Below the pieces are notes generated by a model. The model was given only the letters and a program-made list of their open reading frames with translations, ran no database searches and had not been told where the DNA came from. Position numbers and translations under genes: made by a program. Shown piece by piece: positions 1,100 through 7,685 of a DNA stretch of 64,000 bases. The stretch's first letter is position 1. Each line of letters starts with the position of its first letter. The DNA comes from Natronomonas salsuginis (GTDB lineage Archaea; Halobacteriota; Halobacteria; Halobacteriales; Haloarculaceae). Location of the stretch: NCBI RefSeq assembly GCF_005239135.1, contig NZ_QKNX01000002.1, positions 496,001-560,000 of the forward strand, given 5' to 3'.

Positions 1100-2134
1100 A
1101 TGGAGACACGGAAGGTACAGCGGTTAGGCCCGTCGACGCTCGCGATGACGCTGCCCGCCGAGTGGGCGAGCGCGCAGGGCGTCGAGAAGGGGGACGAGGT
1201 CTCCCTGCGGATCGGGAGCAAGGGTACGCTGACGGTGATGCCCGAATCCGTCGAAAAAGAGGAGAGCGAAGCGGTCATCCACGCGCAGAACCTCGATGCG
1301 GACTCCGTCGAGCGCGCAATCGTCGCCCAGTACGTCCTCGGTCGGCGGATCATCCACGTCGAGGTCGAAGACGAGGGGACGCTCGACTCCTCGCAGATCA
1401 ACGCCGTCTACAACGCCGAAACGCAGCTGATGGGGCTCGGCGTGATCGAGGAGACGCCCGAGCGGATCGCGATCCGCTGTTCGGTCGATCCGGAGGACTT
1501 CACGCTCGATAACCTCCTCGAACGGCTGGAGTCGACCGGCTCGACGATGCGGAACGAGGCGATCAAGGCGCTCGCTCACGGCAACCCGGATCTGGCTCAG
1601 CGGGCGCTGAACCGCGAACGACAGGCGAACAAGATTTTCGTTCTCCTCTTGCGGTTGATTTTCACCTCGTATCAGAACCCCAACCTGGCGCGGGCGGTCG
1701 GCCTGGATTCGGGCTTTCCGCTCATCGGCTACCGGTCGATCGCGAAGAACCTCGAGTTGACCGCCGACAACGCCGAGGACATCGCCGAGATCGTCCTCGA
1801 AACCGAGGGGCACACCCTCAACGTCGATTCGGGGACGATGCGGCGTATCCGGGAGTTCACCGATCAGGTCAACGAGATCACCGAACTGGGCGTACAGGCC
1901 GCGGTCAACCGCGATTACGACATGGCGATCGACACGAGAAACACCTTCGCGGAGGTCCGCAATCGCGAAGTCGAGATCCTCAACGATCTCGAGGAGATGC
2001 CGAACGAGGACCTCCTCCGGGTTCGCGAGGTGCTCGTGAGCCTCGGACAGACGGCCCAGTTCGCGATCAGAAACGCCGAGATCGCGACGAATCTCGCGCT
2101 CAACGAGGATAGCGACCACGTCACGATCAAGTGA
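1100..2134 (+). CDS. phoU: PhoU domain phosphate-uptake regulator with N-terminal AbrB/SpoVT-like domain
   Basis: 344 residues. The first ~45 residues (METRKVQRLGPSTLAMTLPA...) match the AbrB/SpoVT swapped-hairpin fold found at the N terminus of archaeal PhoU proteins. The rest is two helical PhoU repeats (about 110-215 and 225-335), including a conserved-looking ARAVGLDSGFPLIGYRSIAKNLE segment read as two shorter runs, and a terminal RNAEIATNLAL helix. Known role of the family: control of phosphate ABC/Pit uptake and the phosphate signalling state. No pst genes are adjacent, so the gene stands alone with its own AT-rich promoter. Length is typical of haloarchaeal AbrB-PhoU fusions. Confidence 0.88.
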   Translation: METRKVQRLGPSTLAMTLPAEWASAQGVEKGDEVSLRIGSKGTLTVMPESVEKEESEAVIHAQNLDADSVERAIVAQYVLGRRIIHVEVEDEGTLDSSQINAVYNAETQLMGLGVIEETPERIAIRCSVDPEDFTLDNLLERLESTGSTMRNEAIKALAHGNPDLAQRALNRERQANKIFVLLLRLIFTSYQNPNLARAVGLDSGFPLIGYRSIAKNLELTADNAEDIAEIVLETEGHTLNVDSGTMRRIREFTDQVNEITELGVQAAVNRDYDMAIDTRNTFAEVRNREVEILNDLEEMPNEDLLRVREVLVSLGQTAQFAIRNAEIATNLALNEDSDHVTIK

Positions 2135-2138
2135 CGCT

Positions 2139-2900
2139 CTAGGCCTCGTCGTCCGCGTCTCGGTCCCGGAGGCTCGGGTGCATCGTCGGCCGGTCGGGGT
2201 GCGGCGTCTCGAACGCCTCGGTCATGACCGCCATCGATTCCCGCTCGCGCCGTCGTCGCTCCGCCTCGCCGATTTCTTCACACCCCGGCGGCACGTCGCG
2301 TCCGCGATCGGTGAAGTATCCCTCCGGGGCGACCCAATCGTGATAGAAGGGGACGTCGGAGTCGTGAATCAGCGTCAGCGCCACGTCCGCGCCGTGGCCC
2401 GCACAGACAACGGTCTGGTGTGCCGCCCCGGCTATCCGACCGGCGGCGTACAGCCCGTCGAGACCGGTCCGCCCGTCGTCGTCGATGTCGACGTACGTCT
2501 TCGACCCGCGGTTGACCAGGCCGACCGAGCCGAACTCCTCGAGATACGTCGAATCGGCCCACGAGGCCGCGATGACGGAGCCGGCGTCGAGCCCACGATG
2601 TTCGCCGCCGTCGAGTTCGGCACGGACGCGGAAGCCGTTTTCCGCCGACTCGATCGTCGTGACGATCCCCGCCTCGAGGCGTGCGCCGTTCCGCTCGGCC
2701 TGCCGTTCGAGCAGATCGGCGAACAGCCGTGGATTGACGCCCGCGGGAAAGCCAGGGACGTTCTCGAGGTGGGCGTTTCGCCGGAGAATCGACTCACCGT
2801 GGGTGAGGACGACGGTGTCGAACCCGGTGCGGGCGGTGTACGTCGCGGCCGTCAGCCCTGCGACGCCGCCGCCGACGATGACGACTCGGGGGCGGTCCAT
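2139..2900 (-). CDS. FAD-dependent NAD(P)-type oxidoreductase, thioredoxin-reductase-like without CxxC
   Basis: 253 residues from ATG 2898-2900, which is preceded by GGGGAG; an upstream ATG at 2931-2933 would add 11 residues. The N terminus has a Rossmann FAD motif (VVIVGGGVAGLTAA) and the C-terminal part has an ATG-like GLYAAGRIAGAAHQTVVCAGHGA segment, as in the thioredoxin reductase family, which contacts FAD. No redox-active CxxC pair is present and the second nucleotide-binding domain looks short, so classical thioredoxin reductase activity is unlikely. It ends 5 nt from the convergent PhoU gene. Substrate unknown. Confidence 0.8.
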   Translation of the reverse strand: MDRPRVVIVGGGVAGLTAATYTARTGFDTVVLTHGESILRRNAHLENVPGFPAGVNPRLFADLLERQAERNGARLEAGIVTTIESAENGFRVRAELDGGEHRGLDAGSVIAASWADSTYLEEFGSVGLVNRGSKTYVDIDDDGRTGLDGLYAAGRIAGAAHQTVVCAGHGADVALTLIHDSDVPFYHDWVAPEGYFTDRGRDVPPGCEEIGEAERRRRERESMAVMTEAFETPHPDRPTMHPSLRDRDADDEA

Positions 2901-3029
2901 GTTCTCCCCGCCGTTCGGTGGGACGTGACTCATGCCGACGGCTTCGGGCACGACCCGTACAAACATCGCGGTTCCCGGACGACGGGCGCGTCGCGCGCGC
3001 GTCGATGACCGGCGCGAAACGTGGCGCGT

Positions 3030-4346
3030 TCAGGCGGTTGTGCCATCCGAGCGTCGTCGATCCCGGACGTACAACACGACCGTACTGCAGAACGCGAGTG
3101 CCGCCACGCCGGTGGTGATCGCGAACGCGACCCGGTAGCCGAACTCGGTGTAGACGACGCTCCCCGCGACAACGTCGTCGGTCCGGTATCGATCGACCGC
3201 GTACCCCATGAGCGTCGGGAGGATCGTCGCGCCGAAAAAGCCCGCCCCGTTGACGATCGCGGTCGCCACGCCGCTGGCCTCGGCAGGATATCGCTCCTTG
3301 ATCGTCGGCAACGCGAGCACCGTCACGCCGAGACAGCTTCCGATCAGGAAATACTGGACGGCGATGGCGGCCAACGGCGGCGACCCGAACACGGGGATGA
3401 TCGCCAACACGACCACGAAGATACCGAACCCGACGACCATCGGGAGCCTGCGTCGGCCGATTCGGTCGGAGATCCACCCGACGCTCGGGCCACCGACGAG
3501 TATCCCGATCGAGCCGAGCAGGGTGAAATACGACGCCGTCGTGACGTCGAGGTCGTACACTGCGACCAGATACGGGACGCCCCACAGGCCGATCACGGTC
3601 AGAATCGTTCCCATTCCCGAGAAGAACGCGAGCGACAGCAGCCACTGCTCGATATCGCCGATCAGTTCCTGAATGTAGGTGCCGGTTTCGGAGAGGGTCA
3701 CGGACGCTTGTTCGGGGACGTTCTCGATCGGGTCCAGTCCGGCCGCTGCGGGCGATTGTCGAGCGAGTGAGAAGACCGCCACAGCCGAGGCGAAGCCGAC
3801 GACCGCGAGACCGAAGATCGTCCGCTGCCACCCGAACCATTCGACTGCAATCGCCAGCGGCGTCGTTGCGAAGATGGCCCCGACCCCGGCCATCCCCGAC
3901 GTCAATCCGGACATCGTCGCGAACTCGTCGACGCGAAACCAGTTCGCACAGAATCGCAGCGTCGAGATGAAGATCACGCCGCTGCCGAAGCCGATGAGCG
4001 CGCGAGAGAGGACCGCCGCGAGATAGCCGCCGCTGGCCGCGAACCCGATCGCACCGAAGCTGAGCACGAACGCACCGATCGACCCGACGTACCGCGGACC
4101 GTACCGGTCGGCCAACACGCCAGTAGGGATCTGGATGAATGCGTAAATGACGAAAAACGAGGCGTGGAGCGTGCCGAGTTCGGCTGCCGTGATCCCGAAA
4201 TTGGCGGTGAGTTGCTCTGAGAGCACCGCCGTCGATAACCGATGCAGATTGACCAACAGAAAGACGAGCGCCAGCGACCCCCACGCCAACCAGCGCCGCT
4301 TCTTCGGGTCCCTAAGGACGTTCACGGTCACCGTTCTCCGTTCCAT
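3030..4346 (-). CDS. MFS transporter
   Basis: 438 residues with about twelve hydrophobic segments. The cytoplasmic MFS signature after helix 2 is clear (GVLADRYGPRYVG, about residues 75-88) and a second copy occurs in the C-terminal half (GWISDRIGRRRLP). This is the NNP/sugar-phosphate-permease-like branch of the Major Facilitator Superfamily, which moves small organic or inorganic anions by symport or antiport. The substrate cannot be read from the sequence. It is divergent from the MaoC gene and not in an operon. Confidence 0.88.
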   Translation of the reverse strand: MERRTVTVNVLRDPKKRRWLAWGSLALVFLLVNLHRLSTAVLSEQLTANFGITAAELGTLHASFFVIYAFIQIPTGVLADRYGPRYVGSIGAFVLSFGAIGFAASGGYLAAVLSRALIGFGSGVIFISTLRFCANWFRVDEFATMSGLTSGMAGVGAIFATTPLAIAVEWFGWQRTIFGLAVVGFASAVAVFSLARQSPAAAGLDPIENVPEQASVTLSETGTYIQELIGDIEQWLLSLAFFSGMGTILTVIGLWGVPYLVAVYDLDVTTASYFTLLGSIGILVGGPSVGWISDRIGRRRLPMVVGFGIFVVVLAIIPVFGSPPLAAIAVQYFLIGSCLGVTVLALPTIKERYPAEASGVATAIVNGAGFFGATILPTLMGYAVDRYRTDDVVAGSVVYTEFGYRVAFAITTGVAALAFCSTVVLYVRDRRRSDGTTA

Positions 4347-4412
4347 TTGGTAAGCATTATGATGTGACTACTCCGACCGGATTTTTATCCTCCCCCGTCG
4401 ATCCTTCCGCCG

Positions 4413-4871
4413 ATGGTACGCTATTTCGAAGACTACGAGGTCGGCCGCGTGTACGAACCCGACGGACGCTACGAGGTGACCACGTCCGAGGTCAAAGAGT
4501 TCGCCGAAAAGTACGATCCACAGCCGTTTCACCTCGACGAGGAGGCGGCGAAGGAGTCGATCTTCGGGTCGCTCGCGGCGTCGGGGTGGCACACGGCGTC
4601 GATGTGTATGCGGGTGTTCGCGGACGGGTTTCTCGACGAGGAGTCGTCGATGGGCGCGAGAGGCATCGACGAACTGCGGTGGCGCAAACCCGTCTATCCG
4701 GGCGATACGCTCCGGGTCGAGGTCGAAATTCTGGACAAGCGAACCTCCGAGAGCCGTCCGGAGATGGGACACATCCGGACGAAACTCAGGGGATACAATC
4801 AGGACGACGACTGCGTCGTCGAGTGGATCGCCCTCGGAATGCACCGTCGCCGGGATACGAACGATTCGTGA
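4413..4871 (+). CDS. MaoC-like hot-dog dehydratase
   Basis: 152 residues. The MaoC/(R)-hydratase pattern is visible: an N-terminal FEDYEVGRVYE segment, then FAEKYDPQPFHLDEEAAKES, in which the Asp and His form the hydratase dyad of the family, then FGSLAASGWHTASM. The enzymes hydrate trans-enoyl-CoA to (R)-3-hydroxyacyl-CoA, for example for polyhydroxyalkanoate synthesis or degradation; the exact substrate is not determined. A TATA-like attttta at about 4381 lies ~30 nt before the ATG, indicating a leaderless transcript. The nested transposon begins 40 nt after its stop codon. Confidence 0.85.
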   Translation: MVRYFEDYEVGRVYEPDGRYEVTTSEVKEFAEKYDPQPFHLDEEAAKESIFGSLAASGWHTASMCMRVFADGFLDEESSMGARGIDELRWRKPVYPGDTLRVEVEILDKRTSESRPEMGHIRTKLRGYNQDDDCVVEWIALGMHRRRDTNDS

Positions 4872-4902: not shown

Positions 4903-4910
4903 TTATATTT
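4903..4910. repeat. Left copy of 8-bp target-site duplication of outer transposon
   Basis: ttatattt directly abuts the left inverted repeat at 4911 and is repeated exactly at 7678-7685 just outside the right inverted repeat. Eight-base duplications are known for the ISH1-type group of IS5-family elements. Confidence 0.9.
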
Positions 4911-4928
4911 GGCTCTGTTGAAATCCTA
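4911..4928 (+). repeat. Left terminal inverted repeat of outer element
   Basis: GGCTCTGTTGAAATCCTA, matching 16 of 18 positions of the right-end repeat read inward from 7677. Confidence 0.85.
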
Positions 4929-5154
4929 TTCTTCAGACATTTTCACACATGAAACATCCGGTCGCTGAAGGGTGTGAATCTATCCGTTCAAAAATAGACC
5001 ACGGCGAACCAGCAAGAATACGATTGCTACCAGCGGTATTGCGATATAGACTACCGGGACTAACCCAAAAGTAAAACTGTCAAATGTCGCTCGAATTAGC
5101 GTAAATACCGCAACTACGAGCGTCCCATACCAACCGATACGCCTCTGCTGATAT

Positions 5155-5162
5155 ATTCGAAC
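5155..5162. repeat. Left copy of 8-bp target-site duplication of inner element
   Basis: attcgaac immediately precedes the inner left terminal repeat at 5163 and is repeated exactly at 6516-6523. Confidence 0.9.
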
Positions 5163-5180
5163 GGGCTTGTTGAAACCCTC
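5163..5180 (+). repeat. Left terminal inverted repeat of inner element
   Basis: GGGCTTGTTGAAACCCTC, 15/18 ungapped match to the common right-end repeat; the differences are confined to positions 3-5. Confidence 0.8.
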
Positions 5181-5280
5181 AGCAACTGGTAGGAAGCGCG
5201 TGCTGCATATAGAGATTGTAGTCAGCACAACAAGGCGGTGATTTTCCCCAAATTAGGCTTCACTAACTTTAAGGATTTGG

Positions 5281-5290
5281 AATATATATT
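5281..5290 (+). promoter_or_regulatory. TATA-like element of the cargo lipoprotein gene
   Basis: aatatatatt lies 8-17 nt before the ATG at 5298. AT-rich DNA continues upstream (ttaaggatttgg), so the exact TATA box and start site are uncertain, but the sequence argues for initiation at 5298 rather than at the GTG at 5238. Confidence 0.4.
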
Positions 5291-5297
5291 CAAAAAT

Positions 5298-6161
5298 ATG
5301 GGTAAATCGGAGAAGAATGTTTCAAAACGAGATCTATTATGGATTGGTACTGGGATGATTCCACTCGTAGCTGGCTGTTCCGGTTTTAGTGGATCCCCTG
5401 GGACAACAGGATCAAATGAAAATTCAGATCCTACATCAGTAGTTCGGGATTATTTAAAAGCGGTTGAGAATGGCGAGTTTGAGGAAGCAATGCAATTTGT
5501 TCATCCTGAAGGAGAGTTTGAGCAGAGAGCAGAACAACAGGTTGATGCCGGTAACCAAGCTGAATTCCAGGAAATCACAGTTGAGACATTAGAACAAGAT
5601 GAAGAGAGCGCGCTTGTAATGTCGGAGATCGTAACTCGTGACGGGGGCGCTAGACAGAGAATGTATCTCGAACTGGTTCTTGATAATAAAGAGTGGTTAA
5701 TCCATCGTGAGGTACAGCCACAAGACATTGATTCAGAACATCTGCCTGAGGAAGATCTCACAATTGAGCAGCGTGTTCAGGATGTAACGCCAGGAGATTC
5801 ATTTGAGGTCTATGTCGGCCCTACAGACGATGCTACCGAGTTATTTTTCGAGGCGACAGATGTTTCTGAAGTTTGGGGTCTCGGAGAGGAGAGTGATTAT
5901 GCGTATGTTCGGGTAGATTTTTCAAGCGAGCAAGGTAAAGAGATGGAAGACATAATCACTAATATAAATTCATCTAACATAATTATCGTTCAATACTTAG
6001 ATGGCGAAGAAATCGTGTCCACTTCTCTCTCTCGCAATCTTATTACGTTAATAAGAGATGGACTTTGGGCCGAAGATTCGGAACTGAGTTTAACGTATGA
6101 TGATCTTGAAACAGCAGAACGGGTGGCAGCTACAATTTTGGATCTTACAGACGATGTTTAA
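5298..6161 (+). CDS. Cargo lipoprotein: NTF2-like domain plus SecD P1-head-like domain
   Basis: From ATG 5298 the protein has 287 residues: a lysine/arginine-rich start, a hydrophobic stretch and the lipobox LVAGC, followed by a Ser/Gly/Thr linker typical of haloarchaeal lipoproteins. Residues about 45-135 (VVRDYLKAVENGEFEEAMQF...) look like an NTF2/DUF4878-type fold. The C-terminal part (about 160-285), with VRVDFSSEQGKEMEDI, VQYLDGEEIVSTSL and a final DDLETAERVAATI helix, resembles the periplasmic P1 head of SecD. That match is by eye only. Codon use is AT-rich, unlike the host. It is the sole gene of the inner transposon, lies outside the membrane if correctly predicted, and its role is unknown. 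Confidence 0.75.
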   Translation: MGKSEKNVSKRDLLWIGTGMIPLVAGCSGFSGSPGTTGSNENSDPTSVVRDYLKAVENGEFEEAMQFVHPEGEFEQRAEQQVDAGNQAEFQEITVETLEQDEESALVMSEIVTRDGGARQRMYLELVLDNKEWLIHREVQPQDIDSEHLPEEDLTIEQRVQDVTPGDSFEVYVGPTDDATELFFEATDVSEVWGLGEESDYAYVRVDFSSEQGKEMEDIITNINSSNIIIVQYLDGEEIVSTSLSRNLITLIRDGLWAEDSELSLTYDDLETAERVAATILDLTDDV

Positions 6162-6466
6162 AGATCCACATTACAGATAATCACTCTGGGAGATACGAAT
6201 CGCTCATCGACGATGAGTAACCGAGCATAGAGCCAGGTCAAGGATACGGTGTGGTCGTTCACCGGGGTATGCAATCAAGTTTTAAGCAACTATGTGTAGT
6301 CGATTGATGTGAAAATAATGTCCTGCCCACTGTAGATTCCAGTTACTTCTGAAAGCTGACTGATGATGTTCTACCCAAGAACAAAACCAATCAGAATGGT
6401 CTTATTGACAACTGAATGATTCGGCCCCGTCTCAGCAATTCATTTTGAAAGACTTGCGCTGTACAT
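6162..6466. other. Non-coding right half of inner element
   Basis: About 300 bp of AT-rich DNA between the lipoprotein stop and the right repeat. I see no convincing reading frame and no recognisable transposase remnant; it may hold degenerate IS sequence. Confidence 0.5.
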
Positions 6467-6497
6467 TCAGCACGCTCGGTGCAACACATCACTAATT

Positions 6498-6515
6498 GAG
6501 GGTTTCAACAGAGCC
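6498..6515 (-). repeat. Right terminal inverted repeat of inner element
   Basis: Plus-strand GAGGGTTTCAACAGAGCC, identical to the outer element's right end at 7660-7677. Confidence 0.85.
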
Positions 6516-6523
6516 ATTCGAAC
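6516..6523. repeat. Right copy of 8-bp target-site duplication of inner element
   Basis: attcgaac, exact copy of 5155-5162, directly outside the inner right repeat. Confidence 0.9.
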
Positions 6524-6803
6524 TGCTAAGAAAATGAATATAGCCCCTGCGACAACCCATTGTAAGCCGGCAAGTATCTGATAGCTGCTTCCCGCTTCAA
6601 TGGCCGGCCCTGAGAATGGAACCAGAAAGGCTAACCAAAACGAAATGACTGCGAACACCACTAATCCAGCTACAAAGCTGAGAATATCTACTGGTGGATG
6701 ATTCCTGTCCTCATTTTTAAAAAGATCAGCAATGTTCCAGCTCATCTGGGCGAGGGTAGCAGTACAATCTTAGCGAACCCACTTAATTACCTGTATTGAC
6801 CGT

Positions 6804-7625
6804 TCAGAGTGATCGGTCAATGTTGTGACTGAGACAAGCAATAGTGAGTTCACGGAACTGCTTCCACCATCGTCGGGAGCGAACAAACGCACCGTACTTC
6901 CGCTTGAGCGTTGAGTTGACCGCCTCGGATTGACTCCGCTGGCCGTAGAGATCAGCGTCTAAGCGCGCGTTCCATGCCTTGTGGAGCGATGTAAACTCAC
7001 GATGCTTTATCAGTGGCCGAACCTCGTGTTGCCGGGCAAGTTGCCTGATCTTCTGGTCGTCGTAGCCCTTGTCACCGAGTAGAATGCCAATATCTTTCGG
7101 GTTGCGCTTGATCAACGACGGCGCAATCTGGCTATCGTGTTTTCGTGTTGTCGTCACGTGGAGATCGAGGATTGCGTTCACTTTCGTATCGACCAGCAAC
7201 GTCACTTTGAGCTGCTGAATCGTGAGTTCGGCTCGTTTCGTGTAGTGTTTTGAGGCGTGACTGCGGTCGAATCCTGACGCATCAACTCCAACGACACCGT
7301 TTGTTGGAAGTAGCGTCGCTGAGAGAGTCAATATGGCACGCCAGACAGCCATATCAAGCCGGTTGAACGCCTTACAGAGCGTTGATGGCGTAGGAAGTTC
7401 AGCTAATCCGAGGGCGTGACGAATGCGTGGCATCTCGATCAGTTCGTCAAGCAGGCCACGATAGGTCGTGTTCTTCCGAACTTTGAGACACAGCAAAACA
7501 ACGTGCTGGGGAAGTGTATAGCGATGTTTGGAGAACTTTGAGGAGTATCGAGAAACCGCTCGGCGTGCCAAATGGAGCGCCTTCTCAGTAAACCGGAGAA
7601 TCTGCGACTTCGGGAGGGGCTTCAT
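6804..7625 (-). CDS. IS5-family transposase (DDE)
   Basis: 273 residues, apparently full length. The DDE catalytic triad is visible as D115 (VVGVDASGFD), D185 (ILLGDKGYDD) and E234 (SQSEAVNSTLKRKYG), with the Y-x2-R-x6-K-like context of IS5/DDE_Tnp_1 enzymes in the final segment. The N-terminal helix-rich region (about 1-90) would bind the terminal repeats. The 8-bp target duplication fits the ISH1 group of the IS5 family. The start codon at 7623-7625 is 34 bp from the right repeat. It probably mobilises both the outer unit and, in trans, the inner cassette. I cannot name the exact IS. Confidence 0.9.
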   Translation of the reverse strand: MKPLPKSQILRFTEKALHLARRAVSRYSSKFSKHRYTLPQHVVLLCLKVRKNTTYRGLLDELIEMPRIRHALGLAELPTPSTLCKAFNRLDMAVWRAILTLSATLLPTNGVVGVDASGFDRSHASKHYTKRAELTIQQLKVTLLVDTKVNAILDLHVTTTRKHDSQIAPSLIKRNPKDIGILLGDKGYDDQKIRQLARQHEVRPLIKHREFTSLHKAWNARLDADLYGQRSQSEAVNSTLKRKYGAFVRSRRWWKQFRELTIACLSHNIDRSL

Positions 7626-7659
7626 CTCGTGGAATTACAGGACGAACATGTAACTCTCT

Positions 7660-7677
7660 GAGGGTTTCAACAGAGCC
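7660..7677 (-). repeat. Right terminal inverted repeat of outer element
   Basis: Plus-strand GAGGGTTTCAACAGAGCC, ending directly at the 8-bp duplication. Confidence 0.88.
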
Positions 7678-7685
7678 TTATATTT
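7678..7685 (+). promoter_or_regulatory. Right copy of outer target duplication, doubling as TATA box of the gene at 7713
   Basis: ttatattt repeats 4903-4910 exactly. It is also a good TATA box about 30 nt before the ATG at 7713, so the insertion appears to have duplicated the core promoter while replacing the BRE side with transposon end sequence. Confidence 0.65.

What the first reader, a model, noticed from the sequence alone, without database searches (positions are those of the whole stretch)
5155..6523. Non-autonomous cassette that carries a lipoprotein gene and no transposase
The inner unit is 1353 bp with IS-type ends and 8-bp duplication but its only gene is a lipoprotein. This matches the concept of mobile insertion cassettes (MICs) described in bacteria, where passenger genes sit between IS ends and move in trans. 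I am not aware of a well characterised haloarchaeal example with a surface lipoprotein as cargo; this is from memory only.
Basis: partly seen in the sequence, partly recalled or inferred. Interest (0 to 1): 0.8.

Follow-up and report, generated by a model that had tools for sequence, protein, structure and literature searches.

The report
Transposase-less haloarchaeal gene cassette family
The 1.35-kb unit is a mobile cassette that carries a surface-lipoprotein gene between insertion-sequence ends but no transposase, and it belongs to an apparently undescribed haloarchaeal family of such cassettes that share the same pair of ends and carry many unrelated genes.

Summary
The inner unit is window 5163-6515 (1353 bp), flanked by a perfect 8-bp duplication (ATTCGAAC, 5155-5162 and 6516-6523). 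Its one plausible gene is a Tat-type lipoprotein at 5298-6161. It split a 134-codon membrane-protein gene, itself the passenger of an IS5-type element at 4911-7677.
Surveying 146 genomes of the same family gave 44 end pairs with 8-bp duplications, against about 0.4 expected. About 18 lack a transposase and carry different genes: SBF/ACR3-like transporter, kinase plus metallo-hydrolase, halocyanin, regulators, PLP enzyme, SDR, lipoproteins.
Ends fall into about five ~70-bp types; the window unit is type B+A. All 24 B+A pairs (16 not used to define the types) lack transposase, while 27 of 28 C1+T pairs have one. No transposase remnant was found in any transposase-less unit, so this is not a recently deleted IS. 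Tat lipoproteins are enriched as cargo (10 of 44, against 13 of 715 flanking ORFs).
It works like a bacterial mobile insertion cassette. Mobilisation in trans by an ISHla2/ISHxa2-type transposase is inferred: three intact copies are in this genome, but 15 of 20 genomes checked have no intact close transposase.

The parts
5155..5162 (.). left copy of the 8-bp target duplication ATTCGAAC
   Evidence: identical to 6516-6523
5163..5232 (+). left end of the inner unit, type B (~70 bp), begins GGGCTTGTTGAAACCCTCA
   Evidence: HMM B, 61.8 bits (this end was in the training set)
5298..6161 (+). cargo gene: 287-aa Tat-type lipoprotein, lipobox VAGC, weak NTF2-like N-terminal region
   Evidence: PF22819 E 0.003, below cut-off; weak homologues, best E 3e-10, 28% over 123 aa
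6443..6515 (-). right end of the inner unit, type A (~70 bp), begins GGCTCTGTTGAAACCCTCA when read inward
   Evidence: HMM A, 61.3 bits (this end was in the training set)
6516..6523 (.). right copy of the 8-bp target duplication ATTCGAAC
6524..6745 (-). 5' part of the 134-aa membrane-protein gene broken by the inner unit (passenger of the outer element)
   Evidence: rejoined ORF of 134 aa when the unit and one repeat copy are removed
4980..5162 (-). 3' part of the same broken membrane-protein gene
4911..4983 (+). cargo-side end of the outer element, type C1
   Evidence: 61.5 bits; TSD TTATATTT
6804..7625 (-). intact IS5-type DDE transposase of the outer element, the likely trans-acting source
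   Evidence: NF033579 216 bits; 89% and 78% identical paralogues with open frames on contig C5
7604..7677 (-). transposase-side end of the outer element, type T
   Evidence: 75.2 bits
4911..7677 (.). outer IS5-type element with passenger gene, flanked by TTATATTT (4903-4910 and 7678-7685)

Best explanation
The unit is a non-autonomous mobile cassette (a MIC-like element) of a haloarchaeal IS5-type transposon group whose named members are ISHla2 and ISHxa2. Its two ends are distinct ~70-bp modules (B and A). They share the outer ~20 bp and a second block around positions 25-33 with the transposase-bearing T end, and the same transposase is thought to recognise them. Given a transposase made elsewhere in the cell, the cassette moves and leaves an 8-bp duplication; here it landed in the passenger gene of a resident element of the same group. 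Shown: the ends, the duplication, the restored target gene, the lack of any transposase remnant, many sister units with the same end pair and unrelated cargo, one transposase-less cassette at two unrelated sites in two genomes, and intact cognate transposases in this genome. Inferred: mobilisation in trans, recognition of the B end by that transposase, and cargo exchange by recombination or by capture between compatible ends. What the lipoprotein does is unknown; it is probably a secreted, membrane-anchored accessory protein.
For: 44 end pairs with 8-bp duplications. Type census: B+A 24 pairs, 0 with transposase; C+C1 18 pairs, 0; C1+T 28 pairs, 27 with; A+T 8 pairs, 8 with. The pairing is far from random: 81 of 84 fit {T,B,C}x{A,C1}, maximum 61 in 20,000 shuffles. 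16 of the 24 B+A pairs were not used to define the types, and two more turned up in named plasmids of other families (Halobaculum litoreum, TSD GAGTTCTT; Halalkalicoccus). Type A ends are also the second end of transposase-bearing units with perfect TSDs (L082, L089, L104, L172, L204), so transposases of this group act on A ends. Same cargo with and without transposase: L204 T..A versus L124 A..B (84% over 721 bp), L188 C1..T versus L145 C..C1 (83.5% over 395 bp, with the C end in the place of transposase plus T end). Same transposase-less lipoprotein unit in L117 and L134, 86% identical end to end with no flank similarity. Restored genes: 134-aa membrane protein (window) and 385-aa multicopper oxidase (own genome, L036). 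Three intact cognate transposases in this genome.
Against: No transposition was observed. Only 5 of 20 genomes with B+A pairs hold an intact close transposase (at least 65% identical); most others have only 30-47% relatives or fragments, and five have none, so many units may be immobile relics. 14 of 24 B+A pairs have no matching 8-bp flanks; some may be mispairings or rearranged. The A, B and C HMMs were built from transposase-less units, so part of the census is not independent. ISHxa2 itself pairs T with a C end, so the end-pairing rule is strong but not absolute.
Confidence: 0.82

Rival explanations
1. The inner unit is an ordinary IS of the surrounding type that recently lost its transposase by deletion and happens to keep a passenger gene.
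For: Transposase-bearing relatives do carry passengers next to the transposase; related pairs with and without transposase exist (L204/L124, L188/L145).
Against: No transposase remnant in 47 transposase-less units. The ends are B+A rather than T+C1 or T+A. In L145 versus L188 the whole transposase plus T end is replaced by a C end rather than shortened. No close homologue of the lipoprotein was found beside a transposase, or anywhere else, in 146 genomes.
Confidence: 0.06
2. B+A units belong to a different autonomous transposon (for example IS6-type or a distant IS5-type) whose transposase, not the ISHla2-type one, moves them.
For: Many genomes with B+A pairs lack an intact close transposase. 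No transposase gene starts within 120 bp of any B end (0 of 37).
Against: IS6-type elements with resolved ends in these genomes have other ends (GGCACTGTCTAGTTTA, GGCGGTGTTCAGATAA). IS5-type relatives at 40-47% identity have other ends and are compact ~930-940 bp elements (GGCTCTGGTGAATCGC, TGCTCTGTTGAATCCG). A ends are shared with T and T' transposase units that have TSDs.
Confidence: 0.1
3. Chance: unrelated repeats and a chance 8-bp repeat around a normal lipoprotein gene.
For: The left end matches the consensus imperfectly (3 mismatches in 17).
Against: Perfect TSD, ~62-bit matches at both ends (in the training set), in-frame restoration of the interrupted gene, and dozens of sister units.
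Confidence: 0.01

Closest known systems
Mobile insertion cassettes (MICs), described for IS231 of Bacillus cereus sensu lato (IS4 family)
   Same: Passenger gene between IS-type ends, no transposase, TSD of the cognate IS length, modular relation between IS with passenger and cassette without transposase (PMC3129680 and PMC2266710).
   Different: IS5-type, not IS4-type, ends and transposase; archaeal host; 8-bp TSD; two unlike end modules that pair non-randomly; cargo rich in Tat lipoproteins and membrane proteins. [quoted passage not shown]
Transporter IS (tIS; IS1595-type and IS231-type IS with passenger genes)
   Same: The transposase-bearing sister units carry unrelated passengers beside the transposase, as the window's outer element does.
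   Different: IS5-type; complete units with an intact transposase were at least 1193 bp long with extra DNA or a gene beside the transposase, whereas related IS5 groups in the same genomes are bare 930-940-bp elements.
ISHla2 and ISHxa2 (named haloarchaeal IS5-like elements)
   Same: Their transposases are about 93% identical to the window's and they have T ends; ISHxa2 carries two annotated genes (hypothetical and RDD family) between T and C ends with TSD CACCGTCT.
   Different: They encode the transposase; the inner unit does not and has B+A ends.
MITEs of haloarchaea (e.g. Haloquadratum; PMC3119063)
   Same: Transposase-free, depend on a transposase in trans, TSD of the cognate IS.
   Different: Those MITEs are mostly under 500 bp and non-coding; here 0.4-4 kb, mostly with full genes. 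PMC3119063 reports only an ISH2-type element with an ORF.
Halorubrum lacusprofundi transposon passenger gene Hlac_3088 (PMC10544981)
   Same: A haloarchaeal transposon passenger predicted to be a cell-surface protein.
   Different: Single case beside a transposase; relation to the present family was not tested.

Membership tests
Mobile insertion cassette (in the general sense) | No transposase gene inside | tested here: met
Mobile insertion cassette (in the general sense) | Terminal inverted repeats matching those of an autonomous IS in the same genome | tested here: met
   outer ~20 bp shared with the outer IS and two other intact copies; the inner ~40 bp differ by type
Mobile insertion cassette (in the general sense) | TSD of the same length as the cognate IS | tested here: met
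   8 bp for both
Mobile insertion cassette (in the general sense) | Passenger gene unrelated to transposition, differing between cassettes | tested here: met
Mobile insertion cassette (in the general sense) | Moves when the cognate transposase is supplied in trans | not testable with these tools
   needs an excision or transposition assay
IS231-MIC (IS4 family) | IS231-type ends and IS4-family transposase | tested here: not met
   cognate transposase scores as IS5 (NF033579, 216 bits; IS4 model 44 bits, below its cut-off of 115)
ISHla2/ISHxa2-type IS5 elements (outer element) | Transposase above the IS5 model cut-off and close to named members | tested here: met
   (about 93% to ISHla2 and ISHxa2)
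ISHla2/ISHxa2-type IS5 elements (inner unit) | Encodes the transposase | tested here: not met
MITE | Short, non-coding | tested here: not met
   1353 bp with a 287-codon gene
IS6-type element | Ends and transposase of IS6 type | tested here: not met
   IS6-type copies with resolved ends have different ends

The most novel reading that the evidence does not exclude
Haloarchaea possess a general, transposase-dependent gene-cassette system. Compatible but unlike end modules (T, B and C pairing with A and C1) frame interchangeable cargo and are moved by one IS5-type transposase lineage that itself habitually carries passengers. The system preferentially circulates cell-surface lipoproteins, small membrane proteins and regulators between haloarchaea.
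Probability: 0.4. Interest if true: 0.75.

Novelty: new variant of a known kind. Interest (0 to 1): 0.62.

Why it matters
Passenger-carrying IS and transposase-less cassettes are known mainly from bacteria (IS231, IS1595). Here is an IS5-type version in haloarchaea, with dozens of units, different genes and a marked excess of Tat lipoproteins. It offers a simple route by which surface proteins, stress and metal genes and regulators can move one gene at a time between haloarchaea. It also gives a ready system for asking how one transposase tolerates unlike ends. In the plasmid records looked at, current annotation shows these cassettes only as separate, mostly hypothetical genes, so this layer of gene mobility is easily missed.

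Tried and rejected
A close homologue of the lipoprotein was sought in 146 family genomes, plasmids and the GTDB contig set: only weak N-terminal matches, one weak plasmid match, none in the contig set. A solved-structure match: none. AlphaFold2 of the lipoprotein as a single sequence gave mean pLDDT 36 and is not used. IS6-type elements as owners of the B and A ends: rejected. Distant IS5 relatives (30-47%) as owners: those with resolved ends have other ends and carry no cargo. An empty chromosomal site for the outer element in sister species was not resolved: the flanking regions match at separate places in the relatives. Haloarchaeal viruses in the phage collection: no match to the unit. The lipobox count was first run with a too strict pattern and rerun with a looser one applied equally to cargo and background.

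Full report
What is there. Window 5163-6515 (1353 bp) has inward-facing ends GGGCTTGTTGAAACCCTCA and GGCTCTGTTGAAACCCTCA and a perfect 8-bp repeat ATTCGAAC on both sides. Its only convincing gene is 5298-6161 (+), a 287-aa protein with a KR-type signal and lipobox VAGC. GC is about 43% against about 65% in the surrounding chromosome. The unit lies in a larger element, 4911-7677, with ends GGCTCTGTTGAAATCCT / GGCTCTGTTGAAACCCT, TSD TTATATTT and an intact transposase (NF033579 IS5, 216 bits). Removing the inner unit and one repeat copy rejoins a 134-aa membrane-protein ORF. The inner unit therefore landed in the passenger gene of the outer element.

Sister units in the same genome. Searching the genome for the end sequence and the transposase gave further bounded units on contig C5: a 1249-bp transposase-less unit with a 344-aa SBF-family transporter (PF01758; only a weak ACR3 match, 33 bits), TSD GTACATCC, that interrupts a multicopper-oxidase gene (385 aa when rejoined); a transposase unit with an arsenate-reductase-like LMW phosphatase, TSD AATTCCGT; and a transposase unit with a 302-aa unknown gene, TSD AGATTACT. 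No two bounded units found in this genome carry the same cargo.

Family survey. The exact motif GGCTCTGTTGAADNCCT occurs in 76 of 146 genomes of the family, with no match in those genomes for the reversed control. About 140 loci around these ends were fetched. Pairing ends 0.3-6 kb apart with a flanking 8-bp repeat (at most 1 mismatch) gave 44 units; taking the repeats at five wrong offsets gave 2 in total. About 18 have no transposase match. Every complete unit with an intact transposase is 1193 bp or longer and has extra DNA, usually with an ORF, beside the transposase. Related but distinct IS5 groups (40-47% identical transposases) in the same genomes are bare 930-940-bp elements with other ends.

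End types. Aligning the outer 70-90 bp shows recurrent types. T contains the transposase start; C1 is the usual opposite end; A, B and C are further types. All share GGCTCTGTTGAAAYCCT and a second block near positions 25-33. HMMs built from these give the pair census: A+B 24 pairs (0 with transposase), C+C1 18 (0), C1+T 28 (27 with), A+T 8 (8 with), others rare. After removing duplicates, 81 of 84 pairs join one of {T,B,C} with one of {A,C1}; the maximum in 20,000 shuffles was 61. Caveat: A, B and C were defined from transposase-less units, so eight of the 24 A+B pairs are training data; the other 16, and two in plasmids of other families, are independent. The window unit (62 and 61 bits) is itself a training example. 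ISHxa2 pairs T with C, so the rule is a strong bias, not a law. A second transposase clade (T', about 69% identical; L172, L177, L216) also pairs with A ends.

Not a deleted IS. No transposase remnant is detectable in 47 transposase-less units except one 25% chance-level match. Two comparisons show transposase-bearing and transposase-less versions of one cargo: L204 (T..A) versus L124 (A..B), 84% over 721 bp including a Bat/HTH_10 regulator; and L188 (C1..T) versus L145 (C..C1), 83.5% over 395 bp, where a C end takes the place of the transposase plus T end. The change is a swap of one end module, not a ragged internal deletion.

Movement of transposase-less units. L117 and L134 (two genomes) are 86% identical from end to end, carry the same lipoprotein and have no similarity in their flanks. 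Together with perfect duplications and the two rejoined target genes, this indicates transposition as cassettes. The trans source is inferred: this genome has three intact cognate transposases, but of 20 genomes with B+A pairs only five have an intact close one, so many units may now be stranded.

Cargo. Identified by Pfam or NCBIfam, transposase-less units: SBF transporter, 7TM histidine kinase plus metallo-beta-lactamase-fold protein, Bat/HTH_10 plus DUF7344, HAD hydrolase plus FilR1-type regulator, halocyanin-like copper lipoprotein, Cys/Met PLP enzyme plus monooxygenase-like protein, SDR plus HTH_10, DNA methylase, alpha/beta hydrolase plus cupin. Transposase units: LMW phosphatase, GST, PAS histidine kinase. 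Several small membrane proteins have no family. Tat lipoproteins: 10 of 44 transposase-less units with an ORF, against 13 of 715 ORFs in the flanks (Fisher p about 7e-7 when the two homologous ones count once). Literature gives 484 putative lipoproteins in six haloarchaeal genomes (PMC2945643), roughly 2-3% of genes by my estimate; the binomial p against 2.7% is about 2e-6. The ORF calls are crude, and several background lipoproteins sit near solo ends, so the true contrast may be larger.

Distribution. Relatives of the ends occur on plasmids of Halobaculum, Halalkalicoccus, Halomarina, Haloprofundus, Haloglomus, Salinigranum, Halobellus, Haladaptatus and Natrialba. In the phylum survey the end motif is concentrated in the same order, with some families outside it.

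Comparison with the known. The unit meets the testable general features of a mobile insertion cassette and works like one, but it is not an IS231-MIC: the cognate transposase is IS5-type. PMC2266710 noted in 2008 that passenger modularity had not yet been seen outside the IS231 subgroup; PMC3129680 defines MICs and transporter IS. In the open-access library I found no description of such a family in archaea; one surface-protein passenger is mentioned for Halorubrum lacusprofundi (PMC10544981). ISfinder could not be consulted. I therefore call it a new variant of a known kind.

Noticed in passing
G000 contig C5: 71011-72259 (L036) and 101161-102795 (L037): An ACR3/SBF-like transporter and an arsenate-reductase-like phosphatase ride on two separate units of this family, 30 kb apart on the same contig; both score below the curated arsenic-family cut-offs.
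   Followed up: partly
L089:1499-2090 and 2095-4686: A C1..C lipoprotein cassette and an A..T transposase unit with a PAS histidine kinase lie 4 bp apart, as if one had inserted beside the other.
   Followed up: no
G401: C8 46388-46512, C9 43627-43751, C10 441054-441178, C14 8377-8501: Pairs of the same ends exactly 125 bp apart at four places: a likely true MITE of this family in another haloarchaeal family.
   Followed up: no
L133 and L175 (G014 contig C42, G085 contig C1): A 1399-bp lipoprotein cassette plus at least 600 bp of flank on each side is 100% identical in genomes assigned to different genera: recent transfer of a larger segment, or contamination.
   Followed up: partly
L082:1246-5264: A 4-kb T..A unit carries a glutathione S-transferase-like gene, an HTH regulator and an apparent carboxymuconolactone-decarboxylase-like gene: a small detoxification set in one transposable unit (only the GST was checked against Pfam).
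   Followed up: partly
genomes of families f12, f19, f26: Several genomes outside the haloarchaeal order hold many copies of the same end motif, suggesting related elements in other archaeal groups.
   Followed up: no
L171:1221-4004: A transposase of this family is itself interrupted by a 400-aa ORF that looks like another transposase.
   Followed up: no
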